Under the pieces are notes generated by a model. The model made no database searches. It was not told the origin of the DNA and saw nothing but the letters and a program-made list of their open reading frames with translations. Shown in pieces: positions 6,107 through 37,295 of a stretch of 41,697 nt of DNA. Made by a program: the position numbers and the translations under genes. This stretch comes from Deltaproteobacteria bacterium RBG_13_61_14 (lineage in GTDB: Bacteria; RBG-13-61-14): the NCBI GenBank assembly GCA_001797815.1, contig MGQK01000094.1, positions 1 through 41,697 on the forward strand, given 5' to 3'. The first letter of the stretch is position 1, and the number at the start of each line of letters is the position of its first letter.

Positions 6107-7216
6107 ATGAGAGGAGTCGCAAACCGAGGAGTTGTGATCTGCGCCCTGGCCGCGAGCCTGCTGGCGCTGCCGGCGCTGGCGCAAGAGACAAATCCGCTCG
6201 CGCCTTATCCGTCCTGCGAAGAGGTGCTGACCGAGATCCGGGATCTGGCCGCGGCCCATCCCGACCGGGTAGCGCTGGAAGAGATCGGCCAGAGCGTGGC
6301 CGGCCGGCCGATCCCGGCGCTGCATTTCCACCTGGGGCAATTAAACTGTTCGGGGACAGACAGGAACGTCTGTCCCCCACAAGCCCTGATCACGGCCGGC
6401 ATCCATGCCCAGGAGTTCATCGGCACCGAGGTGGCCCTGGCCGCGGCCCGGCTCCTGGCCCAGGGCGACGCGGACCAACTCCTGGCCGGCTCCGATGTCT
6501 GGGTCGTCCCCTTGCTCAACGTGGACGGCCATTGCCAGGTTTATGACGACCAGGGCAAGGGCAATAAGATCACCAAGGGCCGCAAGAACCTGCACGGGGT
6601 GGACCTCAACCGGAACTTCCCGGAGGCGGCCGGGGCCAAGAGCCGGCACCCATTGGCCGGGAACCGCCGGCCCGGGTCCAGCTACTACATGGGCCCAAAG
6701 GCCTTGTCCGAGCCGGAGACCCGGGCGATCGCGGACCTGGTCGCGGCCCATCCTTTCTACGCGGCCATCGCCCTGCACAGCGTGGCCGGGAAATACCTGT
6801 ATCCTTTCTGCTATACCCGGGCGCCGGCGCCGGAGGCCGAGTGGTTCCAGATGATCGGCCAGGCCCTGATCGAGCACCAGCCGCATCATGCCTACCGGGT
6901 CCAGCAGTCCTACTCCTGGTATCCCACTCTGGGCGACCTCGACGATTTCCTCTATATTCAATACGGCATCCTCTCAGCCACGGTTGAGGTGGGCACGGTC
7001 GGCCAGAACCTGCCCCATTTCTTTAGGACCTTCAAGTTCTTCTGGATCTCCAATCCCCAGAACGTGAGCTATTGGACGGGCAACGATGCCGGGGCCATCC
7101 TGGCCGGATTGGACCGGGCCCGGGAGCTGACCAGTGGCCGACCCCTCCCGCCCGGGGCCAAGCCCGGCCGACCCGAATCCCAGGTCATCATCTACCCCCG
7201 GACCCCGGTGCCCTAG
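6107..7216 (+). CDS. Secreted M14-family zinc carboxypeptidase
   Basis: Signal peptide; GIHAQEFIGTE (HxxE), GVDLNRNFPEAAG, ALHSVAGKYLYPF, SATVEVGT. Confidence 0.92.
   Translation: MRGVANRGVVICALAASLLALPALAQETNPLAPYPSCEEVLTEIRDLAAAHPDRVALEEIGQSVAGRPIPALHFHLGQLNCSGTDRNVCPPQALITAGIHAQEFIGTEVALAAARLLAQGDADQLLAGSDVWVVPLLNVDGHCQVYDDQGKGNKITKGRKNLHGVDLNRNFPEAAGAKSRHPLAGNRRPGSSYYMGPKALSEPETRAIADLVAAHPFYAAIALHSVAGKYLYPFCYTRAPAPEAEWFQMIGQALIEHQPHHAYRVQQSYSWYPTLGDLDDFLYIQYGILSATVEVGTVGQNLPHFFRTFKFFWISNPQNVSYWTGNDAGAILAGLDRARELTSGRPLPPGAKPGRPESQVIIYPRTPVP
6352..6377. repeat. Short palindromic repeat inside M14 CDS
   Basis: ggggacagac-aggaac-gtctgtcccc: 10-bp perfect arms, 6-nt loop. Confidence 0.85.
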
Positions 7217-7225
7217 CCGGAAGCG

Positions 7226-9112
7226 ATGAACCGCCTGCAACTCCTCCTCGCCGGCGCCCTCCTCTGCGCGCTGGGGATCATCGCCTACGCCAACTCTTTC
7301 TCCGTGCCCTTTCACTTCGACGACGAGCGGCACATTTCCGAAAACCGCTATATCCGTCTCACCTCGTTTAGTGCTGCGGGGTTATGGAGCGCCATGATTC
7401 AGGACCGAAAAAACAACCGCCCTTTTTCCAACCTCACGTTTGCCCTGAATTATTGCCTGCATGGCGAGCGCGTTTGGGGCTACCATCTGGTCAATCTCAT
7501 GTTCCACCTTGGGGCCAGCGCTGCCATCTTTTTCATCCTGCTCAGAACTTTTTGCCGCGCCGGCTTGCCTGAGATCCGCCGCGATTGGGCGGCACTGGTG
7601 GCGACCGCGGTCTGGACCGTGCACCCGCTCCAGACCCAGGCCGTCACCTACATCGTCCAGCGCCAGACGGTGATGGCCTCGGCCTTCACGCTCTTCAGCC
7701 TGGCGGCATACCTCAGGGGCCGCGAGAGCGCTCAGCGAAGCCGCCGATTCTTCCTCTATTTTTTGACCAGCCTGTTCGCCATCATATCCATTGGCTCAAA
7801 AGAGATCGGCCTGATCACGCCCCTACTCCTCTTTCTCTACGAAGTTTATTTTTTCCAAAAGCTCTCCTCTGCCTTCCTGCGCCGGCGCGCCAAGACCCTG
7901 ATCTTAGCGGCGATCATTTTGGCCGCACTCCTGTTGCCCTATTTCCGGCCCGAAATGCAGAACAAAATTTTCCAGGGCTACAAGAATTGTCCGTTCACGC
8001 CCGGGCAGCGCTTGCTCACCGAGCCGCGGGTACTCTTTGATTACCTGAGCTTGATTCTCCTGCCTTTGCCCTCCCGACTCAGCCTGGAGCACGCCCCGGT
8101 TATCTCCTCCTCTCTCGTCCATCCCTGGACCACCCTGCCCGCCATCCTCGCCTGGATCGCTATGCTTTTCGCCGCAATCCGCTTCGCCCGCCAACAGCCC
8201 CTGCTCAGCTTTGCCCTGCTCTGGTATCTCGGCAACCTTTTCCTGGAATCCTCCTTCCTTCCGCTCGACCTCATGAACGAACACCGCCTCTACCTTCCCT
8301 CCCTCGCCCTGATCGTCCCGATGGTGGCCGCGTCCGTGTTCAAATGGCCTCGGTTGGGCGTCACCCTGGCGGGAATCGGAGTTCTCGTCCTGGTGCTGGG
8401 TGCAGGCACCATCGCTCGCAATAAAGTATGGCAAAATCCACCCTTGCTCTGGCGCGATGCGTTGCGTAAATCAGACGATCGGAATCGCGCCTGGATCGGC
8501 GCCTGGATCAACCTTTGTGTGGAGGAAAACGAGGCGGGCCGTTACCATGCCGCACTTTTTGCCTGCCAGCGGGCCATCCGGAATAACCCGAAGATTGCGC
8601 ATTCCTATAACTCTCTGGGAGTCGCCTATTTTCAACTGGGGAATTTCCCGGAGGCGCGAAAAGCCTTTGAACAAGCGATTGCCTTGAATCCGAACATGGC
8701 CCTAGCCTATCTGAACCTGGCTGATGTTTGCATCCAGGAAGCCAAGCCCGAAGAAGCTCTGGTTCTGCTGCAACGGACTCTTTCCCTCGACGCATCTTTT
8801 TCGGATGCCTATTTGCGTCTGGGAGAAATCTATCTGTCCCGCCATCAGCCCGAACGGGCCATCCCTTACCTCCGCGAATATTTGAGACAAAAGCCGAAAT
8901 GGATCCCGGCCTATTCCGTTTTGGCTTTTGCCTTGCTCAAAGCCGGAGATTGCGTGGAGGCAGAGAATACGGCCCGCCAAGGTCTTGGGTTGAATCCCGT
9001 CCGGCCCGAGCTGAAGATGATATTGCAAGAGTGTTCTCAACCCTTTCCGGCCAGCACCGGAGATACCGGGGGGCTTGAGATAGCCCCTTCGCCCAATCCA
9101 AAAAATCCATGA
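7226..9112 (+). CDS. TMTC-like polytopic membrane protein (GT-C-like glycosyltransferase) with C-terminal TPRs, copy 1
   Basis: Multiple TM segments, HFDDERHISEN near N-terminus, SRLSLEHAPVISSSLVHPWTTLPAILAW, LDLMNEHRLYLPSLALIVP, TPR units (AHSYNSLGVAYFQLGNFPEARKAFEQAIALNP). Confidence 0.87.
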   Translation: MNRLQLLLAGALLCALGIIAYANSFSVPFHFDDERHISENRYIRLTSFSAAGLWSAMIQDRKNNRPFSNLTFALNYCLHGERVWGYHLVNLMFHLGASAAIFFILLRTFCRAGLPEIRRDWAALVATAVWTVHPLQTQAVTYIVQRQTVMASAFTLFSLAAYLRGRESAQRSRRFFLYFLTSLFAIISIGSKEIGLITPLLLFLYEVYFFQKLSSAFLRRRAKTLILAAIILAALLLPYFRPEMQNKIFQGYKNCPFTPGQRLLTEPRVLFDYLSLILLPLPSRLSLEHAPVISSSLVHPWTTLPAILAWIAMLFAAIRFARQQPLLSFALLWYLGNLFLESSFLPLDLMNEHRLYLPSLALIVPMVAASVFKWPRLGVTLAGIGVLVLVLGAGTIARNKVWQNPPLLWRDALRKSDDRNRAWIGAWINLCVEENEAGRYHAALFACQRAIRNNPKIAHSYNSLGVAYFQLGNFPEARKAFEQAIALNPNMALAYLNLADVCIQEAKPEEALVLLQRTLSLDASFSDAYLRLGEIYLSRHQPERAIPYLREYLRQKPKWIPAYSVLAFALLKAGDCVEAENTARQGLGLNPVRPELKMILQECSQPFPASTGDTGGLEIAPSPNPKNP

Positions 9113-10953
9113 TGATCCGATTCCGGCTCGTTCTCTCCTGCCTGGGCCTCTGCGCACTGGGGATCATCGCCTACGCCAACTCCTTCTCCGTGCCCTTTCA
9201 CTTCGACGACCAGACCCACATCACCGAGAACCCTTACCTCCACCAGATGAGCGCGCTCCGGCCGGCGGCCCTGCTCCGGGCCATGGTGCAGGACGGAAGA
9301 CAAAATCGCCCCTTCTCCAACCTCAGCTTCGGCCTGGACTATTATTTCCACGGGGAAAGCGTCTGGGGCTATCACCTGGTCAACCTGCTCCTGCACCTCT
9401 TCGCGGCCCTGATGGCCTTTCTTGCGCTCCGGCTCACCTTTCGCCGCGCCGGTCTCCCCGAAAACCGGCGCGACCTGGCCGCCCTGGCCGCCATCGCAGT
9501 CTGGACCGTGCACCCGCTCCAGACCCAGGCCGTCACCTACATCGTCCAGCGCCAGACGGTGATGGCTTCCGCCTTCCTGCTCGCCACCCTGGCCGCCTAC
9601 GTCGCCGGCCGGGAGGCGGGGTCGCGAGCGCGCAAGTATCCCCTCTATACTGCGGCCCTGGTCGCGATGATCCTGGCCGCGGGATCCAAGGAGACCGCGC
9701 TCGTGACCCCCGCGTTGCTCCTGCTCTACGAGATCTACTTCTTCCAGAACTCCTCCTTTGGCTTGCGGCGAGCTCAGCCGAGCGGCTTCCTGCGCCGCCA
9801 CCCCCTTCAAGTGGCGGTCGCGGTCATCATCCTCAGCAGTCTCTCCATCCTTTACCTCCGGCCGGAAATGTGGGCGAAAATCGCGCTCGGCTACCAGGAC
9901 TACTCCTTCACCCTGCCCGAGCGCCTGCTCACCGAGCCGCGGGTGCTTTTCGATTATATCGGCCTGATCCTCCTGCCCCTCCCGTCCCGGCTCAGCCTGG
10001 AGCACGCCCCGGTTCTTTCCTCCTCGCTCGTCCATCCCTGGACCACCCTGCCCGCCATCCTCGCCTGGATCGGGCTGATCGCCGCCGCCTTCCGCTTCGC
10101 CCGGCTGCGGCCCCTGCTCAGCTTTGCCCTGCTCTGGTTCCTGGGCAACCTCTTCCTGGAATCTTCCTTCCTCCCCCTCGACCTCATGAACGAACACCGC
10201 CTCTACCTTCCCTCCCTCGCCGTGATCGTCCCCCTGGCGGCCGCACCCATCCTTTACACGCGCCGGCGGCGCTGGCCCCTGGCCGGGCTCGGCCTCATCG
10301 TCATCTTCCTCCTCCTCGCCACCATCACCCGCAACCGGGTCTGGCAGAGTCCGCGCCGGCTCTGGACCGACGCAATTGAAAAGGCGCCCGGCGTGGCCCG
10401 GGCCTGGACCAACCTCTGCGCGGTCCAGGTAGCGGAGGCCGACTACTCGGCCGCCCTGGCTGGCTGCCGGCGGGCCGTCGCCATTGATCCCCGCATCGCC
10501 GAGCCGCACAACTACCTGGGCATTGCTTATTACCAGCTCCGCGATCCCGAGCGGGGGGAGCAAGAGTTCCAGAAAGCGATTGCGCTCAACCCTGACTTCG
10601 ACCTGGCGCTCTTCAACCTGGCCGAGCTCTACCGGAAGCAGGCCGAGCCGGAACAGGCCATCGCCGCCTTTCTGAGGACCTTGGCGGTCAACCCGGACAA
10701 TGACCGCGCTCACCTCCACCTCGGGCACCTCTACCTCCTTCAGAACCAGCCCCGGCTCGCCATCCCCCACTATCAAGAGGTGGTCCGGCTCCGGCCCCGC
10801 TGGCCACGAGCTTACTCCTACCTGGCCCAGGCTTACCTGGACGCCGGCGATTGCGCGGCGGCCCGCCAGGAGGCCGAGCGAGGGCTCCGGCTCGATCCCG
10901 CCCAGCCCGATCTGGAATCCATCCGGCAACAGTGTGTCCCTCGCGCTCGATAG
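9109..10953 (+). CDS. TMTC-like polytopic membrane protein with TPRs, copy 2
   Basis: Overlaps copy 1 by ATGA; near-identical blocks to copy 1; TPR C-terminus. Confidence 0.87.
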   Translation: MMIRFRLVLSCLGLCALGIIAYANSFSVPFHFDDQTHITENPYLHQMSALRPAALLRAMVQDGRQNRPFSNLSFGLDYYFHGESVWGYHLVNLLLHLFAALMAFLALRLTFRRAGLPENRRDLAALAAIAVWTVHPLQTQAVTYIVQRQTVMASAFLLATLAAYVAGREAGSRARKYPLYTAALVAMILAAGSKETALVTPALLLLYEIYFFQNSSFGLRRAQPSGFLRRHPLQVAVAVIILSSLSILYLRPEMWAKIALGYQDYSFTLPERLLTEPRVLFDYIGLILLPLPSRLSLEHAPVLSSSLVHPWTTLPAILAWIGLIAAAFRFARLRPLLSFALLWFLGNLFLESSFLPLDLMNEHRLYLPSLAVIVPLAAAPILYTRRRRWPLAGLGLIVIFLLLATITRNRVWQSPRRLWTDAIEKAPGVARAWTNLCAVQVAEADYSAALAGCRRAVAIDPRIAEPHNYLGIAYYQLRDPERGEQEFQKAIALNPDFDLALFNLAELYRKQAEPEQAIAAFLRTLAVNPDNDRAHLHLGHLYLLQNQPRLAIPHYQEVVRLRPRWPRAYSYLAQAYLDAGDCAAARQEAERGLRLDPAQPDLESIRQQCVPRAR

Positions 10954-10976
10954 TTACAATCTAAATAATTTTTAAG

Positions 10977-11005
10977 TTGACAAGAAAAAGTTTTTAGGAT
11001 ATAGT
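10977..11005 (+). promoter_or_regulatory. Strong sigma70-type promoter upstream of the MFS gene
   Basis: TTGACA - 17 nt - TATAGT. Confidence 0.7.
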
Positions 11006-11091
11006 TCGCATACAAAGTAGTTCTAATGTACCGGCAGTAAGGTTTCTTCTCGCGAAAAGGGGTGGCTCGCTCCCGCTGGGCAAGGGAAAGA

Positions 11092-11168
11092 ATCCCTCTC
11101 TCGGCCCGAGCGAGGTTTGCTCCCGGACTTTCCGGGGCAGGGGAAAAATACTTGCGGGAGAGAGGGAT
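11092..11168 (+). other. Candidate stem-loop in the long leader upstream of the MFS gene
   Basis: atccctctctc (11092-11102) pairs perfectly with gagagagggat (11158-11168); internal GC-rich segment with further self-complementarity. Confidence 0.45.
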
Positions 11169-11491
11169 GGGTGTTCTCAAAAAGAGCCGAGGGACTGAAG
11201 TTTCCTTGCGGGTTTGCATTTTTTACAACTGTAATAGATGCTGACAGTTTGCTTTTTTCTTCGGAGCGGCGCGCTCCGGGTGAGCGGGATAATTCCCAGT
11301 GATTTTGAGGAGCTAAGGGGGAAGTCCAAGGGGATTTGATTTGGCACAGCCCTTGCCTTGGAGAGTAGGGGCTTTTCGAGAAGGAAGAGGTATATCCATT
11401 TGCAAATCTGGAAGAGTTCTTCCTGAGAGACTGGCTCAGGGCGAATTGTTTCAGTTGTTTCATTAACCCTCTGTAGTAAGGAGATAGGCGT

Positions 11492-12706
11492 ATGGGTCAA
11501 AATTCGAGTCGCGGATGGCTCGTGACTTTCTCCGGCACCGGGATTAATCTCGCCTTGGGCGTGCTCTATTCCTGGAGCGTCATTTCCAAAGAGATACCTG
11601 CGGACTGGAACTGGAGCGAAACCCACCGCTCCTGGCCTTACACCATTGCCTGTTTGGTCTTTGCCCTGATGATGGTGCCGGCCGGAAAGTTGCAAGACAA
11701 ATTCGGGCCCCGGATCGTGGCCAGCCTGGGCGGCATCTTGACCGGGCTGGGGCTGATCCTGGCCGGCCAGTTTACCACCCTGGGCATGTTTATCCTGGGT
11801 TTCGGCATCCTGGCCGGGACCGGCATCGGCTTCGGCTATGCCTCGGCCACCCCGCCCGCGGTCAAATGGTTTCCGTCCGCCAAGACCGGGATGATCGCCG
11901 GGATCGTGGTCTCCGGCTTCGGCCTGGCCTCGGTTTACATCGCCCCGCTGGCCAAATACTTGATCAAGGCCGTGGGCGTGCAATCCACCCTGATGATTCT
12001 GGGCATCGCTTTCCTGATCCTGGTCACCCTGCTCGCGCAAATGCTTGTCAACCCGCCTCCCCAGCCGGCCGGCGCCAAAGCCGCAGCCGCGGTTCCGGCT
12101 AAAGATTATTCCGCGGGGGAAATGCTCAAGACCTCCCAGTTCTATCTGCTCTGGCTGATGTTCGCCTTTAACGCCGGCGCCGGGTTGATGGTCATCGGCA
12201 AGCTGGCCAAGCTGGTGGAGGTGCAAGCCGGCTTCAAGGCCGGCTTTATCCTGGTGGCCCTGCTCGCCATCGGCAATGCCGGCGGCCGACTCCTGGCCGG
12301 AACCCTTTCCGATAAATATGGCCGCACCCGGATCTTGCAAGCGTTCACCCTGTTCCAGGCGGCCTTGATGTTCCTGACCCCGTTCATCAATAATACCTTC
12401 ATCCTCGTCCTTTTCTCCATGTGCATCGGCATGAACTACGGCTCCAACCTGGCCCTCTTCCCCTCGATCACCAAAGATTTCTTCGGCTTGAAGAATTTCG
12501 GCGTCAATTACGGCCTGGTCTTTACCGCCTGGGGGGTAGGCTCGATCATGGCCTTGCTGGCCGGAAAGATCTACGACCTCTACCAGAGTTTTGAATACGC
12601 TCTTTACCTGGCCGGAGCTTTGCTCCTGGTCACCATCGTGCTCTCCCTGGTGGTGAGAAAACCGGTGGCGGAAGCTAGAGCGGCGGCGGCTGAAGCCAAA
12701 GCTTGA
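11492..12706 (+). CDS. MFS transporter, oxalate/formate antiporter (OFA)-like family
   Basis: 404 aa, ~12 TM; GVLYSWSVISKEIP..W..SETHRSWPYTIACLVFALMMVPAGKLQDKFGPR; RBS 'aaggagataggcgt'. Confidence 0.88.
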   Translation: MGQNSSRGWLVTFSGTGINLALGVLYSWSVISKEIPADWNWSETHRSWPYTIACLVFALMMVPAGKLQDKFGPRIVASLGGILTGLGLILAGQFTTLGMFILGFGILAGTGIGFGYASATPPAVKWFPSAKTGMIAGIVVSGFGLASVYIAPLAKYLIKAVGVQSTLMILGIAFLILVTLLAQMLVNPPPQPAGAKAAAAVPAKDYSAGEMLKTSQFYLLWLMFAFNAGAGLMVIGKLAKLVEVQAGFKAGFILVALLAIGNAGGRLLAGTLSDKYGRTRILQAFTLFQAALMFLTPFINNTFILVLFSMCIGMNYGSNLALFPSITKDFFGLKNFGVNYGLVFTAWGVGSIMALLAGKIYDLYQSFEYALYLAGALLLVTIVLSLVVRKPVAEARAAAAEAKA

Positions 12707-12720
12707 AAGGGAGGTGGTCC

Positions 12721-13860
12721 ATGACACATAAGGCAGGGATGGGAATCGCCGCGGCGGTTGTTTGGGCGGTCATCCTGGCCGGGTCGGCTGTCCCGGCGCG
12801 AGCTCAATGGCAGATCGCCAGCCCGGACGGGAAGGCGAACCTCAAGCTCGGGATTCTCTTCCAGGGGCAGGCCGAGTGGATGGAATTCCCGGAAGTGGGC
12901 GATCCCAACGACTTTGACTTATCCCGGAACATTTTTATCCGGCGTTTCCGGATCCTGGGCGGGGGCAATGTGACCGAGAAGCTTTCCTTTTTCTTCGAGA
13001 CCGACAGCCCCAACCTGGGCAAGGGCATCACCAAGGTGACGGTGAGCCCGGGCGGCACGGTGGCCGTGGAAAATTCCAAGGAAGCGGGAGATATTTACCT
13101 GCAGGATGTATTTGTCACTTATTCCTTCCTGGATGAATTCAAAATCGAAGGCGGGCTGATGCTCACGCCCAACTCCCATAACTCGGAAAGCTCGGCCGCC
13201 GCGCTCCTGCCCATTGACTACGGCCCTTACTCGTTCCTGGCCTCGACGCCCACCCTCTCCCGGGTGGGACGGGACTGGGGCGCCCAGGCCCGCGGCTACC
13301 TCTTCAAGCATTTCGAATACCGTTTCGGCGTTTACCAGGGCTTTCGAGGGGAAAATTCCACTGCCCCCTTCCGCTACGTCGGCCGGGTGGTGGCCTACGT
13401 CTTCGAGCCGGAAACCGGCTTCTTCTATACCGGCACTTCCCTGGGCACCAAGAAGATCCTGGCGCTGGGGTTCAGCGGCGACGGCCAGGAGACCTATCGC
13501 TCTTACGGCGGCGACATCTTTATGGATCTGCCCATTCCCAACGGGGACGGGCTCACGCTGCAAGGGGATTACATCTATTATGATGGGAATGATACTTTTC
13601 AACAACTGCCGGTCCAGAATACCTGGCTCGCCGAAGCGGGTTACTATAACAAGGCGGCCCGGCTGGGACCCTTTGTCCAGATCGGGGTGCAAGACTTCGC
13701 CGATCCGGACCTGCACGACGAGAACCGCTACCAGGGCGGGCTGGCCTATTGGGCCTTCGGGCACAAATTCAACCTCAAGCTCGGCTACACCCAGATTTAC
13801 AAGCAGCATGAGCGCCGCCGCAACCAGGTGGTGCTCCAGTGCCAGGTGTTCCAGTTTTAA
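12721..13860 (+). CDS. Outer-membrane porin (phosphate-selective porin O/P-like)
   Basis: Signal peptide MTHKAGMGIAAAVVWAVILAGSAVPARAQ; SRNIFIRRFRILGGGNVTEKLSFFFETD; terminal aromatic F; RBS gggaggtggtcc. Confidence 0.8.
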   Translation: MTHKAGMGIAAAVVWAVILAGSAVPARAQWQIASPDGKANLKLGILFQGQAEWMEFPEVGDPNDFDLSRNIFIRRFRILGGGNVTEKLSFFFETDSPNLGKGITKVTVSPGGTVAVENSKEAGDIYLQDVFVTYSFLDEFKIEGGLMLTPNSHNSESSAAALLPIDYGPYSFLASTPTLSRVGRDWGAQARGYLFKHFEYRFGVYQGFRGENSTAPFRYVGRVVAYVFEPETGFFYTGTSLGTKKILALGFSGDGQETYRSYGGDIFMDLPIPNGDGLTLQGDYIYYDGNDTFQQLPVQNTWLAEAGYYNKAARLGPFVQIGVQDFADPDLHDENRYQGGLAYWAFGHKFNLKLGYTQIYKQHERRRNQVVLQCQVFQF

Positions 13861-14005
13861 GGGAAAAGCGAGGCTTGGCAAAATTTTGGAAGCTGTCATA
13901 TAATAACCGGCTCTGGGGTTAAAAAGGATTCTTCCTTTCGGTTTGGGGAAGGGAAGAGGAAACTCGGGGCTGATCGGGATCAAGGAGAGTAAGGAGGAAT
14001 TTGCC

Positions 14006-16015: not shown

Positions 16016-16166
16016 TACCATTTTCTAGTTGATCTGAAACAAATAAGAACCCCGACCTACCGAATATTCGCCGGCACCCCCAGCGCGGCGGAGCCGCAAC
16101 TCCTGGCCGAGAGCCTCGGAGAAGGTCTGGTAACATTCTCTGGGGAGGAGAGAGCGTTGGTAAGGT

Positions 16167-16694
16167 CTATTTTAATTCTTCTTTGAATAAGCCCATGCGG
16201 ATGATGTCGTGGTATTGGCCCTCGCGGAAGAACTCCCGGCGGAAGACGCCCTCCTGGACGAAGCCGGCGTCCTGGTAGCACTTGAGGGCGCGGGGGTTGA
16301 AGGCGTAGGTTTCCAGGTAGAGCTTGCGCAGGTTGAGGAAGTCGAAGGCATACTGGGCCAGGAGCTTGAGGGCCTCGCGGCCGAAGCCCTTGTCCCAGTA
16401 TTCGGGGAGCCCGATGACGATGCCGACCCGGGCCTTGCGGTCGCGGGGGTCCATCAGGTCGAGGCCGCAGTTGCCCAGATATTGGCCGGAAAGGGATTCG
16501 ATCACGAACGACTTCCGGGTGGGGTCGTCGTCCAGGACCCGGCGCTCGAGCCAGGCCCGCTCCGCCTGCCGGCTGATCGGATACCAGACCGCGGAGAGGG
16601 TCCGCACCACGTTCCAGTCGTTCAGCCACTTCAGGCAGTGGGCCAGGTCTTCCGCCTCCAACGCCCGCAGTCGAACCTTTTCACCGTGGAGCAT
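16167..16694 (-). CDS. GNAT-family N-acetyltransferase (RimJ/RimL-like)
   Basis: LRALEAEDLAHCLKWLND..., RVGIVIGLPEYWDKGFGREALKLLAQYAFDFLNLRKLYLETYAFNPRALKCYQDAGFVQEG; likely start ATG 16694 with AAAGGAG upstream. Confidence 0.88.
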   Translation of the reverse strand: MLHGEKVRLRALEAEDLAHCLKWLNDWNVVRTLSAVWYPISRQAERAWLERRVLDDDPTRKSFVIESLSGQYLGNCGLDLMDPRDRKARVGIVIGLPEYWDKGFGREALKLLAQYAFDFLNLRKLYLETYAFNPRALKCYQDAGFVQEGVFRREFFREGQYHDIIRMGLFKEELK

Positions 16695-16748
16695 GGCTTG
16701 GCTCCTTTTGCTCCTAACCCGGCCGAGCCGGAACCAAAAAAAGATTTT

Positions 16749-16820: not shown

Positions 16821-16873
16821 TCAGTTCTGTATTAAATCGTGCCCACTTTGGCAATAATGTTAGCCCGAAGCGC

Positions 16874-17107: not shown

Positions 17108-17140
17108 AAACAGTCTCCTCTCCCCTGCTTGTAAAATTGA

Positions 17141-19828: not shown

Positions 19829-20986
19829 TCAGGGAGACCCGTCCCGCGCGCAACGAAACCCAAAGCAGTTGAACCGAACCCCCGCGAACTCGGCGTTGCG
19901 GTCCGACACGCGCAGGGCCGCCGGATCGTCGACCCAACTGCTCCCGCGCAAAATGTCCTTTTCTTCCACCCATTCCATTACATTCCCCGCCATATCCATA
20001 GCCCCGTAAGGTGAAGCCCCGGCCGGTTTGCTCCCCACCGGCAAAGTCCGACCTATTTCGCAGGCATTGTTATGTGCTAAATTACAATTCGGCGCTGAAT
20101 TACCCCAGGGATACTCTCTTCCATCGGCCCCTTGAGCCGCCTCTTGCCACTCCTGCTCTTTGGGCAGGCGCTTTCCGGCCCATTGGCAATAGGTCCGGGC
20201 CTCCTCCTGGTTGACATAAACCACCGGCTGGTTGGGGGCATCAAACCTGCTTGTCTTCTTGGTTTTCTTGCACCCTCCTCCAGCTACGCATTCCTGAAAG
20301 TCCTGGTTAGTCACTTCATACTTGTCAATGTAGAACTTGAAGTCGGAGACAAAGACCATAGGGCCGCCTTTGGTACCGGGCGGGTGAAATTCTTGGAAAG
20401 TTTTTGGCGAGGGTTGCGCAGGCAAGAATGCCTGCGCCCCTTGAGGAGTTGGCTGCACCCCTGCCGCTTGTGGCAGTTGCGGAATGGGCACGGATTCGCC
20501 AAAGTGGTTTCTGACCTTGACTCCGGCCGCGGCGACCAGAAGATCGAGCTGGTCTTCGGTGCAGGCGCATTCCACCCGGTCGCTGTAATCCATGGCGCTG
20601 GTTTTCACGTCCACCAGGTCAAAGGTCATGAGGTATCGTGATCCCAATTTGCTCAACTCGACGACCATCATTTTTTGGGCCTGGACCAATTTCCCGATTT
20701 CCACCTGGCACATGGTCGAATCGCACAAGTCGGACATATTCATCGCCTGTCGTTTCATGACCTCTTCAAGCATGCTTTCCTTGATCACGATCAGGTTGGG
20801 GGACTTGGTCAGCTCATTGGTCAGGAGCGAGGTCAGGGTGGCGGCCAGCGATTTTTCCACCGCGCCCACTGCCTTGAGCGGATAAACCGCCACGCTGGTC
20901 TTGGCCGGAGGAGCGGCCGGAGGGGCTTGGGCCATGAAAGCCAGGGCCGCCAGGGCCAGGCTCAATCGTTTCAGAATCATTTTCAT
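19829..20986 (-). CDS. Exported protein with CsgG/TolB-N-like N-terminal domain and C-terminal formylglycine-generating-enzyme (SUMF1)-like domain
   Basis: Signal peptide MKMILKRLSLALAALAFMAQ; SVAVYPLKAVGAVEKSLAATLTSLLTNELTKSPNLIVI; FYIDKYEVTNQDFQECVA...YCQWAGKRLPKEQEWQEAAQG...GNVMEWVEEKDILRGSSW...GFRCARD. ORF-track start 21055 lies in a repeat. Confidence 0.85.
   Translation of the reverse strand: MKMILKRLSLALAALAFMAQAPPAAPPAKTSVAVYPLKAVGAVEKSLAATLTSLLTNELTKSPNLIVIKESMLEEVMKRQAMNMSDLCDSTMCQVEIGKLVQAQKMMVVELSKLGSRYLMTFDLVDVKTSAMDYSDRVECACTEDQLDLLVAAAGVKVRNHFGESVPIPQLPQAAGVQPTPQGAQAFLPAQPSPKTFQEFHPPGTKGGPMVFVSDFKFYIDKYEVTNQDFQECVAGGGCKKTKKTSRFDAPNQPVVYVNQEEARTYCQWAGKRLPKEQEWQEAAQGADGREYPWGNSAPNCNLAHNNACEIGRTLPVGSKPAGASPYGAMDMAGNVMEWVEEKDILRGSSWVDDPAALRVSDRNAEFAGVRFNCFGFRCARDGSP
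20416..20437. repeat. Short palindromic repeat inside the SUMF-domain CDS
   Basis: gcgcaggca-agaa-tgcctgcgc. Confidence 0.8.
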
Positions 20987-21004
20987 GGAGTCAACAATCC
21001 GCGA

Positions 21005-21024
21005 GGCAGACAAGAATGTCTGCC
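21005..21024. repeat. Short palindromic repeat at 5' end of SUMF-domain gene
   Basis: ggcagac-aagaat-gtctgcc; same loop as the copy at 20416-20437. Confidence 0.8.
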
Positions 21025-21043
21025 CCACCACATTTCTTTTCCC

Positions 21044-21070
21044 TATATACGACATACTACATACGACATA
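21044..21070. repeat. Dispersed 23-27 nt repeat (tatatacgacatactacatacgacata)
   Basis: Reverse complement recurs at 30549-30571 with about 2 mismatches in 23. Confidence 0.75.
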
Positions 21071-26662: not shown

Positions 26663-26829
26663 GTCAAGCCACCCGTGTTGCGCGTCCAGTCCCCCTGTCG
26701 TATCAGACTGGATTTCCTTGCCATTTTTCCATCCCACCAGGCCTAGGCTCAAAAATGAACCCCAATCAGACCTAGCCTCTACATCTTGTTATCCTACTTG
26801 AAAAAAATACTAGGAATAGTATTTTTCCC

Positions 26830-26857
26830 TTTACAATTTTTTTTTCTTTGTTATAGT
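26830..26857 (+). promoter_or_regulatory. Putative sigma70 promoter upstream of smc
   Basis: TTTACA - 16 nt - TATAGT in AT-rich tract. Confidence 0.55.
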
Positions 26858-26911
26858 TAGACCAATTGGGACAAATGTGACCTAGACTAGGACGCGGAGG
26901 GCTGATCTTCG

Positions 26912-30480
<3,569 letters not shown>

Positions 30481-30481
<1 letters not shown>

Positions 30482-30609
30482 TGCACAGTGCACGGTGCAC
30501 AGTGGACAGTGAAAGAAAACGTGAACCTGAACGTGGACGAATGAAAGGTATATCGTATGTAGTATGTTGTACAGACTTTTTTCAATCTGTTCACGTTCAG
30601 GTTCACGTT
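30481..30609. repeat. Composite repeat cluster at smc 3' end
   Basis: gtgcacagtgcacggtgcac tandem, then aacgtgaacctgaacgt (30518-30534) / acgttcaggttcacgtt (30593-30609) perfect 17-bp IR, enclosing the 30549-30571 repeat. Confidence 0.8.
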
Positions 30610-30707
30610 CAAGGTCTCAAGCCTCCTGCCTTTCCCATCAGCCCTGTTTGGCTTCTGCAATGGCCTGGGCCAGTTCATCGGCCCGTTGCGATCCGATCAT
30701 GAAGTTT

Positions 30708-31511
30708 TTACCGTCGGTCAGTTCCAGGAGCGCGCCCCGGCACGGGTTTGCGGGCGGAGATCAGAAGAGAGCCGGCGATTTCGAGCAACAGCGGGATGGC
30801 TTCCAGAATTTTGCCGACGACGGAAACGAACGGGATCAGAGCGGGCGGGATGGCGGGGTGGAGGAAGTCGAAGGGGGTGATGGCGACCTGGGTGAAGCCC
30901 AGCTCCTGGAGGAGGCGGCGGAGGCGGAAGCGGACGAAGGCGGTCTCATCGGCCGAGTCGCCGGCCCAGCGCCGGAGCCGGGGAATTTTTCTTTGCAGGA
31001 ACATCTGGGGGTTGAGCAGGTTGGGCTCGGCAAAGGCCAGGGCCGCGCCGGGCCGGAGCAAGCGGAAGCTTTCGCGGAGCGCAGGGGCGAGGTCGAGGTG
31101 GTGGAGCACTGAGTTACCCACCACGGCATCGAAGCTCTGGTCGGGAAAAGGAAGTTTGTCTGCGGTAGCGGGCAGGTAAAGGATCTTTTCGCCCGGGTAA
31201 GTCTGAACCGCGAGCGCGATCAGCTCGGGCGAGAGGTCGGTGGCGATGATCTCGGCGCCGGAGCGGCGGTATTTCTCGGTAAAGAAGCCGTTGCCGCAGC
31301 CGATTTCGAGCACGCGGAGTCCGGGTCGAAGCCCCGCAGCCCGGACGCACAGCTCGGCCCTCCGCTCGGCCCGCACCCGGCCGGCCGCAGAGGACCAGCC
31401 CCAGCGCTCCTCGGCCCGCGCCCCCACCTCCCGTGCGTAAGCTCGCTCCCGCTCCTGGCGCAAGCTTGGGTGGTTGTTTTCGTTAAGTTTAAAGTTTAGA
31501 CCTGACCCCAT
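30708..31511 (-). CDS. SAM-dependent class I methyltransferase
   Basis: RVLEIGCGNGFFTEKYRRSGAEIIATDLSPELIALA...FDAVVGNSVLHHLDLAPALRESFRLLRPGAALAFAEPN. N-terminus overlaps repeat-like DNA, so exact start is uncertain. Confidence 0.87.
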   Translation of the reverse strand: MGSGLNFKLNENNHPSLRQERERAYAREVGARAEERWGWSSAAGRVRAERRAELCVRAAGLRPGLRVLEIGCGNGFFTEKYRRSGAEIIATDLSPELIALAVQTYPGEKILYLPATADKLPFPDQSFDAVVGNSVLHHLDLAPALRESFRLLRPGAALAFAEPNLLNPQMFLQRKIPRLRRWAGDSADETAFVRFRLRRLLQELGFTQVAITPFDFLHPAIPPALIPFVSVVGKILEAIPLLLEIAGSLLISARKPVPGRAPGTDRR

Positions 31512-31524
31512 TTGACTAGTTGAC

Positions 31525-32889
31525 TCATCGCGGAGGAGCTCGCCTGGGTCTAAGCCCCGGCGGAGGCGCTATCATCCTCATCCGTTCCTGCTCATTCCTC
31601 GGGCTGTATTCCACCCGCACTCCTTGGCTGAGCAGAAAAGGAATATCCTGCTCCACCGCCTGATCGCTCAAGGGATTTTCTTGGAGCTTGACCATGTCCC
31701 CTTTGCCCAGCCCGCCCGCCTTGCAGTTTTTCACCAGGCCGGAGATATCGGCGATGTTGTTATCCTCCAAGTCCAGGCTCTTAAGGTTCACCAGACCGGC
31801 CAGGACTGCGGTGTCGGAAATAGTGGTTTGCTCGAGCTCCAGCTGCGTGAGCTGGGTCAAGCCGGCCAGGGGTGAAAAATCTTGGAGGCGGTTGCCGCTC
31901 AAGTCCAGAAAATTCAGCTTGGTCAGCCGGCTCAAAGGGGCAATGGAGGTGATCTGATTGTGGTCCAGGCCGAGCGCGCCCAGGTTCGTAAGCCCGGCCA
32001 GGACCCGGATATCCGAGATTCGATTGTGGCCTAAAGAGAGGCTGGTGAGGTTGGTCATCCGCTTGACAAACGAAATATCCTCGAGGTTGTTATCTATCAG
32101 GAACAGCCATTTCAGGTTAGTCATTCCGGCCAGCGGGCTCAGGTCCTGGATCGAGGTCGAATCAAGGTAGAGATAAGTCAGCTTGGGCAATTCCGCCAGG
32201 GGCGCGATGTCCTGGATCGGATTCTCGTCCAGGCCAAGATAAGTCAGATTGGTTAAGCTCGCCAGAGGGGAGATATCCTGGAGGTTGTTTCGGACCAGAT
32301 TGAGCTCTTCCAGGCGGGTCAGAGTTTTAAGAGCGGCAAGGTCCCTGATCTGGTTGGAGACCAGGCTGAGCTCTTTCAAGTTAATCAGGCCGGCTAGGGG
32401 CGAGAGCTCGCTAATGCGGTTTCCGTAAAGATCCAACTCGGTCAATTGGTGCAGTCCGCGCAGAGGCCGCAGCTCGCTGATCTGGTTTTTGCCCAACTCA
32501 AGTCGGGTCAAGGCCGTGCAGTGCTCGATCCCGGATAGGTCGCTAATCCCCTCGCCTACGCCCTGTAAATAAGTCAAGCTTTTCAGGTCGGACAATCGAA
32601 TCTCCCCCTCGGAGCTCCGGATATATAACCGGACCCTGGCTTCCAGCCCAGAATCAGGGAAGTGGATGATGGGATCTGAAGTATTGCCAGTCAGCATTGG
32701 AACATTCTGGATGCTTGCGCTTGGCTCTTCGAGTCCTTCATCTCTGCGCTGGATTGCCGGAAGACTTGAAATCTGCTTCGATTTTCCTTGATTGGCATCA
32801 GTAGGTGGGGCTTGCTCCTTGCAGGATAGACCTGAGCCAAGGATAAATAACAGCATCAGAGATAATGGCAATCGAAATAATTTATTCAT
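31525..32889 (-). CDS. Leucine-rich-repeat (internalin/SDS22-type) lipoprotein
   Basis: Lipobox SGLSC after signal sequence; ~13 repeats like 'LTNLTYLGLDENPIQDIAPLAELPK'. Confidence 0.9.
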   Translation of the reverse strand: MNKLFRLPLSLMLLFILGSGLSCKEQAPPTDANQGKSKQISSLPAIQRRDEGLEEPSASIQNVPMLTGNTSDPIIHFPDSGLEARVRLYIRSSEGEIRLSDLKSLTYLQGVGEGISDLSGIEHCTALTRLELGKNQISELRPLRGLHQLTELDLYGNRISELSPLAGLINLKELSLVSNQIRDLAALKTLTRLEELNLVRNNLQDISPLASLTNLTYLGLDENPIQDIAPLAELPKLTYLYLDSTSIQDLSPLAGMTNLKWLFLIDNNLEDISFVKRMTNLTSLSLGHNRISDIRVLAGLTNLGALGLDHNQITSIAPLSRLTKLNFLDLSGNRLQDFSPLAGLTQLTQLELEQTTISDTAVLAGLVNLKSLDLEDNNIADISGLVKNCKAGGLGKGDMVKLQENPLSDQAVEQDIPFLLSQGVRVEYSPRNEQERMRMIAPPPGLRPRRAPPR

Positions 32890-32944
32890 CTATACCATCC
32901 TTTTGAATAAAGTATGCCTATAAGCTATTACTATTCTTATTAAT

Positions 32945-33355
32945 TTAACATTTGATTTTCTTTTCATTGTTCACGGATTTAGGGGAAATAACGCTATGCT
33001 TATTTGCTTTTGATATTTTTCTTGAATATAGATATAACATTATAAGTGATATTATAATTAATAGTGGAGGTAGCATTGCAAAAATTAGTATAAAATCCTC
33101 ATCATTTATCTCAAATAATGTATTAAGCCATATCATAATTATCATAGAGCTTCCAACACCTATTCCCATCGCTAATGAAATATATCGATACGTAGTTTTA
33201 TCTCTTAAACCTGGTCGTAATAATATATTTAGGTTCCATAATATTAAAAATATCATAGTAATTGCAAACGTCCAAAATAACAATAGAATTATCGTATGTT
33301 CGCTTGGAGTTCTGTATGATGACAAAATTGTTTTTAGCATAATAATCTCAATCAT
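32945..33355 (-). CDS. AT-rich hypothetical integral membrane protein
   Basis: 136 aa with ~3 TM helices; overlaps upstream ORF by ATGA. Confidence 0.6.
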   Translation of the reverse strand: MIEIIMLKTILSSYRTPSEHTIILLLFWTFAITMIFLILWNLNILLRPGLRDKTTYRYISLAMGIGVGSSMIIMIWLNTLFEINDEDFILIFAMLPPLLIIISLIMLYLYSRKISKANKHSVISPKSVNNEKKIKC

Positions 33356-34014
33356 CGTATAATTTCTAAATTACATTGCCTCTCGCCCACATAACCACCA
33401 AAGCCTAAACCAGCAAATGGAATATCCAAGCCAAAACATTTTGATTCGCTGCCAAAATCAAAGCTGGCTCCAGATCCGTATGGACCAAATCCCGCTGCAT
33501 CGCCAACTCCAAAACTTTCTCCTTCTATATCATCAATGCATTTAGAGTCCCAGCAAAATATTCCAGATAAGCCTCCTCCAATATAAACCCCTTTGGGATT
33601 ATCACTTGAACAAGTTACTTTAAAATTATAGCTAGGAAAAGTTTCGGCTGCCACCAGTGTACCCCGTCCCCATAAACCATAGATGGCATCATTTGTCAAT
33701 GATGAAGGATCTGAAGCGCCTTCAAAACTTACTTGACCTCCAATCCATGTTCCAAGCCTGCTATCCGGACAATTCGATGACTTACAGCATCTTCCCAGGT
33801 TGGCCCAATAGCCGGTGGGCCTTGGCAAATTATTGAAGTCGTAGAGGTCAAAAGAGACCTGGCCGTAGCCGGGATCCGGCGCCACGATAAAGATGTATTC
33901 ATCCGGCTCATCTCCTGAGGTAAAAAAGTCCGGATAGACCACGATCTGATCCTTGTCCTGATTTCGCTTCTCCTCATGTTCATAGGTATGCATGCTCGGA
34001 AGCGGCTTCATCAT
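33352..34014 (-). CDS. Hypothetical protein, Gly/Cys/aromatic-rich
   Basis: 220 aa, RBS-like ggaaggg before ATGATG; no recognised domain. Confidence 0.6.
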   Translation of the reverse strand: MMKPLPSMHTYEHEEKRNQDKDQIVVYPDFFTSGDEPDEYIFIVAPDPGYGQVSFDLYDFNNLPRPTGYWANLGRCCKSSNCPDSRLGTWIGGQVSFEGASDPSSLTNDAIYGLWGRGTLVAAETFPSYNFKVTCSSDNPKGVYIGGGLSGIFCWDSKCIDDIEGESFGVGDAAGFGPYGSGASFDFGSESKCFGLDIPFAGLGFGGYVGERQCNLEIIR

Positions 34015-34084
34015 ATCCCTTCCATAAGACCCCGGCCCTTTATCCTCGTAAAGCTTTAGCCCTCATCTGACCTCATTTGTTCCT

Positions 34085-34555
34085 TTACAGCGAAACCGGC
34101 CGCTTGGCCAGCGCCAGCTTTTTCAGGTCCGCGATTTTTTGCAGCAGGCGTTTCTGTTTGGCCTTGTCCCGGGCATGGGCCTTGACCTCTTCGGCCAGGC
34201 GCTCGAGCACTTCCGCGTAGGTCACTTTTTTACGGGCCGGCAGGTCCGGGGGCAGGTGGGGGGCATGGTCGCGGGCGGTGTCGGTCAGGGGGAACGCCTC
34301 ATCCAGCTTGCCCGGGTCTTTTGCCAGTTCCAGGCCCGGGTCGCGCAACCGGGCGAAGTGGATCTGGGGGTAAATGGCTTCGGGCGGGTAGGAGGTGGAG
34401 AGGAGGATGTAGCCGTGTTCTTCCAGGTAAAAGAGGTTCTTGAACAGGGTGCGGGCATCCACCGAGATCGCCTCGACCATTTCCTGGAATTTGACCGGCT
34501 TTTTACGCTCGGCCAAAAGCGCGATCACTTTACGGCTGAGTTCGTTATTGGTCAT
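34085..34555 (-). CDS. Winged-helix-like hypothetical protein
   Basis: MTNNELSRKVIALLAERKKPVKFQEMVEAISVDARTLFKNLFYLEEHGYILLSTSYPPE; RBS ccaaggagg before ATG 34555; overlaps the end of the upstream transducer gene. Confidence 0.7.
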   Translation of the reverse strand: MTNNELSRKVIALLAERKKPVKFQEMVEAISVDARTLFKNLFYLEEHGYILLSTSYPPEAIYPQIHFARLRDPGLELAKDPGKLDEAFPLTDTARDHAPHLPPDLPARKKVTYAEVLERLAEEVKAHARDKAKQKRLLQKIADLKKLALAKRPVSL

Positions 34556-36812
34556 GACGGTCCTCCTTGGGGCCGGGGGAGAACACGGCGGAAAAAGAAG
34601 GCACAAAGTCCGGTTCCCGCCGCTCCTGGTCTCCGTTCGGCCCCACCATCTGGCCTAGCGTCTCGGCCAGACGGTTGAGTTCGAGGGTGGACGACTCGAT
34701 TTCCCGGGCGCTCTCGACAAAGCTGCGCGCCACCTCGTTGATTTCGGCGATGGTCATGGCCAGGTGTTCGCCGGCCGAGGTCTGCTGGGTGGAAGACAGG
34801 GAGATTTCTTGAGCCGCGGTCGCGGTCTCCTCGGCCAGGGCGGTGAGGCTCTGGAAGGAGTTGCCCACCTGGCCCGCCACCCGGTGGGTGGCATCCACCT
34901 GCTTGGCGCCCTCCTCGGTCACCATGATCGCCCGGTTGGTCGCCTGCTGGAGCAGGGAGATCATGTTCTGGATCTGCCGGATCGAGCCGGCGATCTGCTC
35001 GGCCAGCTCCCGCACCTCGCCGGCGATGATGCTGAAGCGCCGGCCAACCTCGCCGGCCGCCGCCGCCTCGATCGAGGCGTTGAGCGAGATCATGTTGGTC
35101 TTTTCCGAGACCTCCCGGATCAGGTCGAGGATGCTTTCAATCTTGAGGGCGTGCTCCTGCAAGCGGATCATCTCGTCCGCGATCTCCCGCACCCGGGAGT
35201 TGATCCGATCCATGCCCCCGATGATGTTGCCGATGTCCTCTTGCCCCTGCCGGCAGGCGTGCAGGGTCTGGCCGGCCACCCGCTCCACCGACCGGGCGTT
35301 CTCGGAGATGAGCTTCAAGGTGGCCGCGATCTGCTCGGAGGTGCTGCTCACCTGCTGGATGCTGGCCGCCTGCTCGGTGGCGCCGGTGGCCTGGTTGGTG
35401 GCGATATCCACGATCCGCTCGGTGTTGGCGCCCAAGTGGAGGGTGGCCTCGCGCAAAGCCGCGACCAGGCTTTCGGACTCCCTCACCTTGAGCGCCAGCC
35501 GGTCGGCCATGCGGTTGAAGTCGAGGATGAGCAGCCCGATCTCGTCATTGGTGTCAAAGCGCGCGCGGGCGGAGAGGTCGCCCTCCTGGATGGCCCGGGC
35601 CGTGGCCTGCAGCCGGCGCAAGGGGCCGGCCACGTCGCCGATGACCAGATAGGCGAGGAGCACGGTGAAGCCCAGGCAGGAGATAATGAAGACCGCGAGC
35701 AGGCTGGTCGGGTAGTTGAGCAGGAAATGGAAGAGCGAAGGATACTGCGGGAGCGTGCCGGTCCGGGGAAGGAGTTCCACCAGCGCGCCCCAGTTCCGGC
35801 CGTCCGAGTTGGTCCCTGGCAGCAGGCAGTCCAGGGCCCGGCCCTGGAGGCGGGTGAGGTGGTGGTCGGGTTCCAGGACCACCCGGTCCAGCCAGCCGAT
35901 CATCCGGGCGCGGAACGGATGTGTCTGCTCGAAAGCCCGGCGGCCGAGCAGGTAACGCGATTCCAGGAGCCGGGCCGACTCCGCGGGATCGAGGTCCCCG
36001 GCCTGGAGCCGGCCAGCCTCGTCCACCGCAAACAGCCGCACCCGGTAGCCAAAACCGGATTGAACCAGCTCGGGCGGCTGACCCTGGGCCTGGGCGAATT
36101 CGGCCTGGGCCACCTGTTGCCGCGCCTCGGCCAGACCCTGGTCCAAGAGGGCCCAGCGCTGGAAATAATAAAGCTCGAAGGCCATGCAGGCCAGGACGGA
36201 AATGATCAGGTAGGTGAAACTGAAGGCCGTCTTCCTGCGGAAGGTGAGCGGTCGGGCCAACAGGTTCGGGTCATCTTGGGGCAGGTAGGGCTGGAGCAAG
36301 GCATGCACCGGCCGCAGCGTGCGCCGGACCAGGAAGAAATTGAAAATCGAGGTGAGCGAGCCCAGGAAGGCGCCGGCGGCCACAAAGGCCAGGATGTCAA
36401 AGAGGCTGAGGTCCACCCGGAGAAAGCTCCATACGCCCACCCCGGCCGAGCCTGAATACCAGCCGCCGGCCGAGACTACTGAAGCAAAGGAGGCGAACCA
36501 AAAGGCGCGGTGATGAACGGCCACGGCCTCGGTGGGAGAAGGGGGCTGGTTTTGCTTCAACTGGTTGAGGAAGCGATGCACCGGCTGGAAGGACCAGTAG
36601 CCGGCGGCCAGGTCGAGGCCGATCAGGGGCAAAAAGATCAGGATCATGCCGATCAGGCCCTCGACCAACTGGGCCGGGGACAGCCGCAAGGCGGACTGGA
36701 TAAAGACCAGGGCGATGAGGACGCCGATGGCCGAGAGTATCAAGGCGTTAAAGCCCAATCGCGCCATGATCGGCCAAGGCGACAGGGACGCGGTTTCCGG
36801 TTTTGGCTCCAT
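34545..36812 (-). CDS. Methyl-accepting chemotaxis-like transducer (N-terminal multi-TM module, HAMP, MA)
   Basis: DVAGPLRRLQATARAIQEGDLSARARFDTNDEIG (HAMP); VSEKTNMISLNASIEAAAAGEVGRRFSIIAGEVRELAEQIAGSIRQIQ. Confidence 0.9.
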   Translation of the reverse strand: MEPKPETASLSPWPIMARLGFNALILSAIGVLIALVFIQSALRLSPAQLVEGLIGMILIFLPLIGLDLAAGYWSFQPVHRFLNQLKQNQPPSPTEAVAVHHRAFWFASFASVVSAGGWYSGSAGVGVWSFLRVDLSLFDILAFVAAGAFLGSLTSIFNFFLVRRTLRPVHALLQPYLPQDDPNLLARPLTFRRKTAFSFTYLIISVLACMAFELYYFQRWALLDQGLAEARQQVAQAEFAQAQGQPPELVQSGFGYRVRLFAVDEAGRLQAGDLDPAESARLLESRYLLGRRAFEQTHPFRARMIGWLDRVVLEPDHHLTRLQGRALDCLLPGTNSDGRNWGALVELLPRTGTLPQYPSLFHFLLNYPTSLLAVFIISCLGFTVLLAYLVIGDVAGPLRRLQATARAIQEGDLSARARFDTNDEIGLLILDFNRMADRLALKVRESESLVAALREATLHLGANTERIVDIATNQATGATEQAASIQQVSSTSEQIAATLKLISENARSVERVAGQTLHACRQGQEDIGNIIGGMDRINSRVREIADEMIRLQEHALKIESILDLIREVSEKTNMISLNASIEAAAAGEVGRRFSIIAGEVRELAEQIAGSIRQIQNMISLLQQATNRAIMVTEEGAKQVDATHRVAGQVGNSFQSLTALAEETATAAQEISLSSTQQTSAGEHLAMTIAEINEVARSFVESAREIESSTLELNRLAETLGQMVGPNGDQERREPDFVPSFSAVFSPGPKEDRHDQ

Positions 36813-36875
36813 GATCGCGCCTTATCTTAGCATCCGGATTTTCCAAAAGCAAACCCGTTTGGGGTCAGTGCCTGA

Positions 36876-37005
36876 GGGCCTGTTGCCCAAATTAAATTCA
36901 TGTTTAGCCTTCTTTTTCATCATCGCAAAATCGCGGGGTTACCTCGTAGGGGCGACCGGCCGGTCGCCCCTACGGCCCGCCCAATACGATTTGGGCAACA
37001 GGCCC
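36876..37005. repeat. Nested inverted-repeat element (MITE/REPIN-like)
   Basis: Outer arms gggcctgttgcccaaat (36876-36892)/atttgggcaacaggccc (36989-37005) perfect 17 bp; inner 30-bp perfect palindrome cgtaggggcgaccgg/ccggtcgcccctacg (36945-36974). Confidence 0.85.
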
Positions 37006-37033
37006 CTGACTTATGACTTATCTGTCACTTAAG

Positions 37034-37210
37034 ATTTCACGCCAAGCCGCCAAGACGCAAAGAAATTAAACTGCCGGTCCAAGCCATTACCAAAGGGTTT
37101 GCGGCTTTGCTTCTGGCTGGCCAAGCTCAGGCCGGAACGGGGGAGGGGTCGCCAAGACCAAACCCTAGACGCTAAGAAGCTCTTTTCCCTTTCGCGCCTT
37201 GGCGTGAGAT
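37034..37210. repeat. Inverted repeat of 'TTTCACGCCAAG' type
   Basis: atttcacgccaag near 37034-37046 vs cttggcgtgagat near 37198-37210, 12/13. Confidence 0.6.
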
Positions 37211-37271
37211 TCTTTCTTAACTGAACAACATTGGGCCCTGACCCCAATCCACCAATCCATTAGGTCGGGCA

Positions 37272-37295
37272 GGGGGACAGGCATTCCTGCCGGTC
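37272..37295. repeat. Degenerate copy of the ARGAAY-loop palindrome
   Basis: gggggacaggc-attcct-gccggtc. Confidence 0.55.

What the first reader, a model, noticed from the sequence alone, without database searches (positions are those of the whole stretch)
6352..37295. Family of short palindromes with conserved ARGAAY loop but variable arms, scattered across the window
Four hairpins share a 6-nt loop (aggaac 6362; aagaat 20424 and 21012; attcct = revcomp aggaat 37283) flanked by arms that differ between copies but stay self-complementary (ggggacagac, gcgcaggc, ggcagac, gggggacaggc). A conserved loop with compensated arm changes suggests selection or mobilisation as a hairpin, for example by a RAYT-type Y1 transposase acting in trans. 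No such transposase is visible in this window.
Basis: partly seen in the sequence, partly recalled or inferred. Interest (0 to 1): 0.72.

Follow-up and report, generated by a model that had tools for sequence, protein, structure and literature searches.

The report
Transposase-type REP hairpins, partly inside genes
The four hairpins are real members of a family of about 60 short, mobile-looking DNA hairpins (REP elements) in this genome; such elements are known, but this family recurs in many unrelated bacteria, can sit in frame inside protein-coding genes, and led to relatives of its enzyme lying in frame inside bacterial defence genes.

Summary
Read on the other strand, each hairpin is a 4-base foot (GGGG, GTGG, rarely GGAG/GTAG), an 8-bp stem (usually GACAGRCA), a TTCY loop and often an AACC tail. 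The genome holds about 58 copies by covariance model (E ≤ 0.01), and 43 pattern matches against 0 for a reversed control. Stem changes are compensated, including between two paralogous genes that share one insertion. The same core occurs in 23 of 386 sampled genomes (240 hits against 2 control hits), mostly with the canonical REP foot GT[AG]G. In G055 and G134 such hairpins flank a RAYT (Y1/HUH) transposase. The window's genome has 19 Y1 genes; a RAYT group among them carries a sister hairpin family with the same feet, and the exact cognate enzyme was not found. Two window copies lie in frame inside genes (a peptidase loop and a linker). This is a new member of a known kind (REP elements, probably RAYT group 4/subclass 2.4). 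The freshest side result: related RAYTs are nested in frame inside restriction, Hma-type methylase or helicase genes in eight places.

The parts
6349..6382 (-). Copy A of the TTCY REP family (hairpin 6352-6377), 'double foot' form GGGG...CCCC, in frame inside an M14 carboxypeptidase gene
   Evidence: Covariance-model hit, E 6.5e-7; exact core-pattern match
6107..7216 (+). Host gene of copy A: zinc carboxypeptidase (Peptidase_M14); the hairpin encodes about 'SGTDRNVCPP' in a loop 8 residues longer than in carboxypeptidase A4
   Evidence: Pfam PF00246, E 7.3e-45; phmmer alignment to PDB chains; translation
20411..20444 (-). Copy B (hairpin 20416-20437), foot GGGG, stem CGCAGGCA, loop TTCT, in frame in the linker before an FGE-sulfatase domain
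   Evidence: Covariance-model hit, E 3.1e-7; translation ...PTPQGAQAFLPAQPSP...
19829..21055 (-). Host open frame of copy B (FGE-sulfatase domain, residues 240-404); the likely true start is near 20986
   Evidence: Pfam PF03781, E 1.4e-35; start judged by eye from the signal-peptide-like MKMILKRL
20999..21032 (-). Copy C (hairpin 21005-21024), foot GTGG, stem GGCAGACA, loop TTCT, just upstream of the likely start of the FGE-domain gene
   Evidence: Covariance-model hit, E 7.2e-7
37268..37301 (+). Copy D (hairpin 37276-37295), foot GGGG, stem GACAGGCA with one unpaired position, loop TTCC, tail AACC; no listed open frame of 100 aa or more covers it
   Evidence: Covariance-model hit, E 2.7e-9; ORF list

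Best explanation
The hairpins are REP elements: short non-autonomous mobile hairpins built as foot GKRG, 8-bp stem, TTCY loop, AACC-like tail. Most likely mechanism: a RAYT (HUH/Y1 transposase) recognises the unpaired foot plus the hairpin on single-stranded DNA, cuts next to it and rejoins it elsewhere, so copies spread in trans. Because shape, foot and loop matter more than the stem sequence, stem changes persist when the partner base also changes; this gives the constant loop and the variable but self-complementary arms. Copies are kept mainly between genes, and inside genes where they leave the frame open and fall in loops or linkers. Shown: the family, its copy number, covariation, the foot, in-frame gene copies, and RAYTs flanked by inverted copies in other genomes. 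Inferred: that a RAYT moved the copies in this genome, and which one (one of the group at C130/C71/C63, or one now lost or missing from the assembly). The cutting and joining steps rest on what is published for TnpA-REP, not on tests here.
For: Copy number 43 against 0 control and 58 model hits at E <= 0.01. Covariation and a compensated A-T/G-C change at the same site in two paralogous methylase genes, L001 and L021. Foot GGGG 26, GTGG 8, GGAG 2, GTAG 1 of 38 here; GTAG 21 and GTGG 7 of 36 in other genomes, matching the published GT[AG]G REP head. Core present in 23 of 386 genomes, 240 hits against 2 control. RAYTs flanked by inverted TTCY hairpins in G055, G134, G296, and by close variants in G002 of the same order. 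Own genome: 19 Y1 genes, the three RAYTs scanned score above the NCBIfam REP-associated tyrosine transposase cut-off, with sister hairpins of the same build beside them. Head-to-head hairpin pairs in G296, G191, G330, G003.
Against: No RAYT in this assembly is flanked by the exact TTCY hairpin. The commonest foot here is GGGG rather than GT[AG]G. No empty site with exact borders was found, so movement is inferred from copy number and spread. The TTCY-flanked RAYTs do not form one clade, and in several genomes rich in the core (G056, G191, G283, G354, G330) the fetched RAYT loci show no directly flanking copy.
Confidence: 0.85

Rival explanations
1. Regulatory hairpins (terminators, attenuators or protein-binding sites) that are kept for a function at each place rather than spread by transposition.
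For: Most copies lie between genes; stems are conserved and compensated.
Against: No run of T follows the stem in the copies listed; no Rfam family matches the window; several copies lie inside open frames and are translated; the same hairpin flanks RAYT genes elsewhere.
Confidence: 0.06
2. Ends of a different mobile element (for example a MITE of a DDE transposase) that happen to be palindromic, unrelated to RAYTs.
For: Longer flanking stretches recur beside some copies, such as 'aaccgctaagaaaagag' and 'atctggaagggg'; six copies share a 39-base insert in the loop.
Against: Flanks combine in different ways while foot and hairpin stay constant; GT[AG]G-type foot and RAYT flanking in other genomes. 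No DDE transposase search was made.
Confidence: 0.06
3. Chance palindromes picked out by eye.
For: Short palindromes with a given loop are easy to find in 42 kb; the hairpin at 26803-26826 has the loop but not the foot.
Against: 43 against 0 control in the genome; 5 against 0.42 expected in the window; conserved unpaired foot and tail.
Confidence: 0.01

Closest known systems
REP elements with TnpA-REP/RAYT of subclass 2.4 (Bertels RAYT group 4), described in PMC6006769
   Different: Commonest foot here is GGGG; this exact hairpin is not beside a RAYT in this genome; no formal assignment of the RAYTs to a subclass was run.
GTAG REP superfamily and TIRYT/TIRtrons (Di Nocera et al. 2013, PMC3733652)
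   Same: GT[AG]G-tagged palindromes in other genomes of this family; TIRs near RAYT-like genes there share GGGGWSAS, which GGGGACAG fits.
   Different: The figure with the family sequences could not be read, so identity with a listed GTAG family or TIR is untested.
REP and RAYT of Stenotrophomonas and others (Nunvar et al. 2010, PMC2817692)
   Same: 5' GT(A/G)G head followed by a complementary palindrome with a short unpaired middle; RAYT genes between inverted REPs.
   Different: Other stem and loop sequences.
Rickettsia palindromic elements (from memory; not compared here)
   Same: Palindromic repeats inserted in frame inside protein-coding genes.
   Different: As recalled they are much longer and not tied to RAYTs; a lead only.

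Membership tests
REP element | Short palindrome in many interspersed copies | tested here: met
   58 model hits at E <= 0.01; 43 pattern hits against 0 control
REP element | Unpaired GT[AG]G foot 5' of the stem | tested here: inconclusive
   Other genomes: 28 of 36 GTAG/GTGG. This genome: GTGG/GTAG 9 of 38, GGGG 26 of 38
REP element | RAYT gene flanked by the same hairpin in inverted orientation | tested here: inconclusive
   Met in G055 and G134; not met in the window's own genome
REP element | Mobility or cutting by the RAYT | not testable with these tools
   Needs biochemistry or strain comparison
RAYT subclass 2.4 / group 4 | HUH and Y---NP motifs of class 2 TnpA-REP | tested here: met
   HVH and Y..(L/N/H)NP in the translations; NF047646 scores 86-92 against cut-off 80
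RAYT subclass 2.4 / group 4 | REPs in frame inside the RAYT gene between HUH and Y motifs | tested here: met
   Hairpins inside the genes at C130:61916 and C63:16087; trait as described in PMC6006769. These are the sister hairpins, not the TTCY family
RAYT subclass 2.4 / group 4 | Placement in the published subclass tree | not tested
Intrinsic terminator | Stem followed by a run of T | tested here: not met
   Tails are AACC, ATCC and the like; only one of 38 listed copies is followed by T's
Described RNA family (Rfam 15) | Match above a gathering score | tested here: not met
   0 matches in the window

The most novel reading that the evidence does not exclude
This REP/RAYT lineage settles preferentially, and in frame, in restriction-modification and Hma-type methylase genes, both as small hairpins and as whole transposase genes, leaving long continuous host frames: an intein-like niche without splicing. 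In the window's genome three such methylase genes carry this REP in frame just before methylase motif I (L001, L021, L027). In other genomes RAYTs lie in frame inside Type IIG methylases (G055, G134), a Type I R subunit (G162), HmaB/DUF1156 methylases (G049, G234 twice, G363) and a SNF2 helicase (G018).
Probability: 0.25. Interest if true: 0.72.

Novelty: new member of a known kind. Interest (0 to 1): 0.5.

Why it matters
It places a patchily distributed hairpin family, shared by distant bacteria, in the REP/RAYT system, and shows a compensated stem change between two paralogous genes that share one insertion. If the nested-transposase pattern holds, it would show how a transposase can live inside defence genes without breaking their frame, and it makes testable whether such composite enzymes still restrict phage or still move DNA.

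Tried and rejected
Chance: rejected by controls. Terminator or known RNA family: no T run, no Rfam hit. Direct flanking by a RAYT of the own genome: looked for around the 19 Y1 genes and further weaker hits, not found. RAYTs in core-rich genomes G056, G191, G283, G354, G330: no directly flanking copy among the fetched loci. Idea that the hairpin is special in having no stop in any of six frames: true, but so do all simulated hairpins of the same stem composition, so it means nothing. Single origin of the TTCY-flanked RAYTs: the tree needs two changes, and many of its branches are weak. Papers: none in the library holds the core sequence, and none was found on RAYTs nested in methylases (few terms tried). 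Phylum-wide searches for more nested RAYTs covered only 5 and 7 genomes because the phyla held are small.

Full report
Observation. All four hairpins are in the sequence. On the strand that reads TTCY, each has a 4-base unpaired foot, an 8-bp stem, a 4-nt loop and a short tail. For the copies at 6352, 20416 and 21005 this is the minus strand, for the one at 37276 the plus strand. The 37276 copy has one unpaired stem position.

Beyond chance. The window is part of contig C94 of a 4.74-Mb, 132-contig assembly (95% complete). The pattern GACAGACARGAAYGTCTGTC with up to 3 mismatches has 43 matches, the reversed control none. A covariance model from 31 distinct copies finds 68 hits at E <= 1, of which 58 at E <= 0.01. 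In the window itself 5 hairpins of this kind stand against a mean of 0.42 in resampled sequence. In the model alignment three stem pairs change on both sides, with 15 doubly changed cells; no shuffle of 500 reaches the covariation score. Shuffles do not remove relatedness, so the best single case is a pair of paralogous methylase genes, L001 and L021, closely similar around the hairpin: they hold the same insertion, and one stem pair is A-T in one and G-C in the other.

Anatomy. In 38 copies of this genome the foot is GGGG 26 times, GTGG 8, GGAG 2, GTAG 1, other 1; the loop is TTCC 19 and TTCT 19; the commonest tail is AACC. Six further copies hold a 39-base insert, GC-rich and partly palindromic, in the loop with an apparent TC duplication (L097-L102); they occur with both GACAGACA and GACAGGCA stems.

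Distribution. The 16-base core CAGRCATTCYTGYCTG is in 23 of 386 sampled genomes (22 genera), with 240 hits summed from the table (G056 108, G296 31, G000 30) against 2 for the reversed control. In the loci read from other genomes the foot is GTAG 21 and GTGG 7 of 36. Head-to-head pairs, typical of REPs, occur in G296, G191, G330 and G003. The same-order genomes G001 and G002 have 32 and 27 model hits.

Transposase. The window has no Y1 gene, but the genome has 19. A group at C130 (two genes), C71 and C63 is related to the RAYT of G055; the three scanned score above the NCBIfam cut-off for REP-associated tyrosine transposases. Around the C130 and C63 genes stand hairpins of the same build (foot GGGG/GTGG, 8-bp stem, 4-nt loop) but with other stem and loop sequence, and the C130 type alone has about 59 exact copies in the genome. 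[quoted passage not shown] RAYTs flanked by hairpins centred on CA-TTCY-TG were found elsewhere: G055 and G134 with the CACAGRCA stem, G296 with GGCGGACA, and G002 of the same order with GCGGGRCA-like stems. So the architecture and the loop belong to RAYT-associated hairpins, while the enzyme that spread this family here is not identified. It may be one of the present RAYTs acting through the shared foot, or one lost or unassembled. The tree of these RAYTs does not unite the TTCY-flanked ones, so the loop type may switch or spread between lineages.

Copies inside genes. Copy A lies in an M14 carboxypeptidase, in a loop 8 residues longer than in carboxypeptidase A4. Copy B lies in a linker before an FGE-sulfatase domain. 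Copy C lies just upstream of the likely start of the same gene. Elsewhere in the genome in-frame copies are in two Type IIG-like methylases just before motif I, in a DUF1156/HmaB methylase, in a family 2 glycosyltransferase, in two probable membrane proteins without a Pfam match and in a probable ABC ATPase named from its sequence only. REP insertion in linkers and loops of unrelated genes is already reported (PMC6006769).

Side result. Several relatives of the G055 RAYT share one open frame with a much larger protein: Type IIG methylase in G055 and G134, Type I R subunit in G162, HmaB/DUF1156 methylase in G049, G234 (two sites) and G363, SNF2 helicase in G018. In G049 and G234 one insertion falls at about the same HmaB position, near 454-461 of 967. 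The host frames run on through both sides, except that the G055 gene lacks motif I and has a frame break downstream. An earlier survey set aside unexpectedly long Y1 proteins as fusions or annotation errors. The number is small and there is no background rate, so a preference for defence genes is a suggestion only.

Verdict. A real, mobile-looking REP family; a new member of a known kind, with an unusual foot and an unidentified cognate transposase.

Noticed in passing
window 36945-36974: CGTAGGGGCGACCGGCCGGTCGCCCCTACG: a perfect 'double foot' palindrome beginning GTAG and ending CTAC, which looks like a REP of another family.
   Followed up: no
window 26803-26826: AT-rich hairpin AAAAATACT-AGGAAT-AGTATTTTT with the same loop letters but no GKRG foot; probably not a member.
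   Followed up: partly
L097-L102 (G000 C53:119522, C123:49141, C53:98620, C81:114893, C76:30224, C81:61449): Six copies carry a 39-base insert (CGCCTTCGCGGAGGACGAAGCGCTTCGGCGGAGTCTC plus a doubled TC) in the hairpin loop, with different stems and flanks: either moved as a composite or hit repeatedly.
   Followed up: partly
L280 (G134), L287 (G055), L281 (G162), L282 (G049), L283 and L284 (G234), L319 (G363), L285 (G018): RAYT genes nested in one open frame inside restriction, HmaB/DUF1156 methylase or SNF2 helicase genes of 559-1399 aa.
   Followed up: partly
L027:2-1915 (G000:C92): A DUF1156/HmaB-type methylase of the window's genome carries a TTCY REP in frame before motif I and, further on, a GIY-YIG domain in the same frame.
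   Followed up: partly
L001 against L021 (G000 C33 and C53): Paralogous methylase genes share the REP insertion; L001 alone also has GTAGGGGCGCACC...GCGCCCCCTAC downstream in the same open frame, a possible later insertion of another REP family.
   Followed up: partly
L103:2-700 (G000:C52): Three hairpin-like units in tandem, in frame (STGIPFRKRSTGILARSTGILAC), in a probable membrane protein.
   Followed up: no
flanks of L003, L008, L009, L010, L011, L013 (G000): Other short intergenic repeats recur beside the hairpins, for example 'ccacagattacgcagattt', 'aggtgtcagggtgtcaa' and 'cactgtgcactgttcactg'.
   Followed up: no
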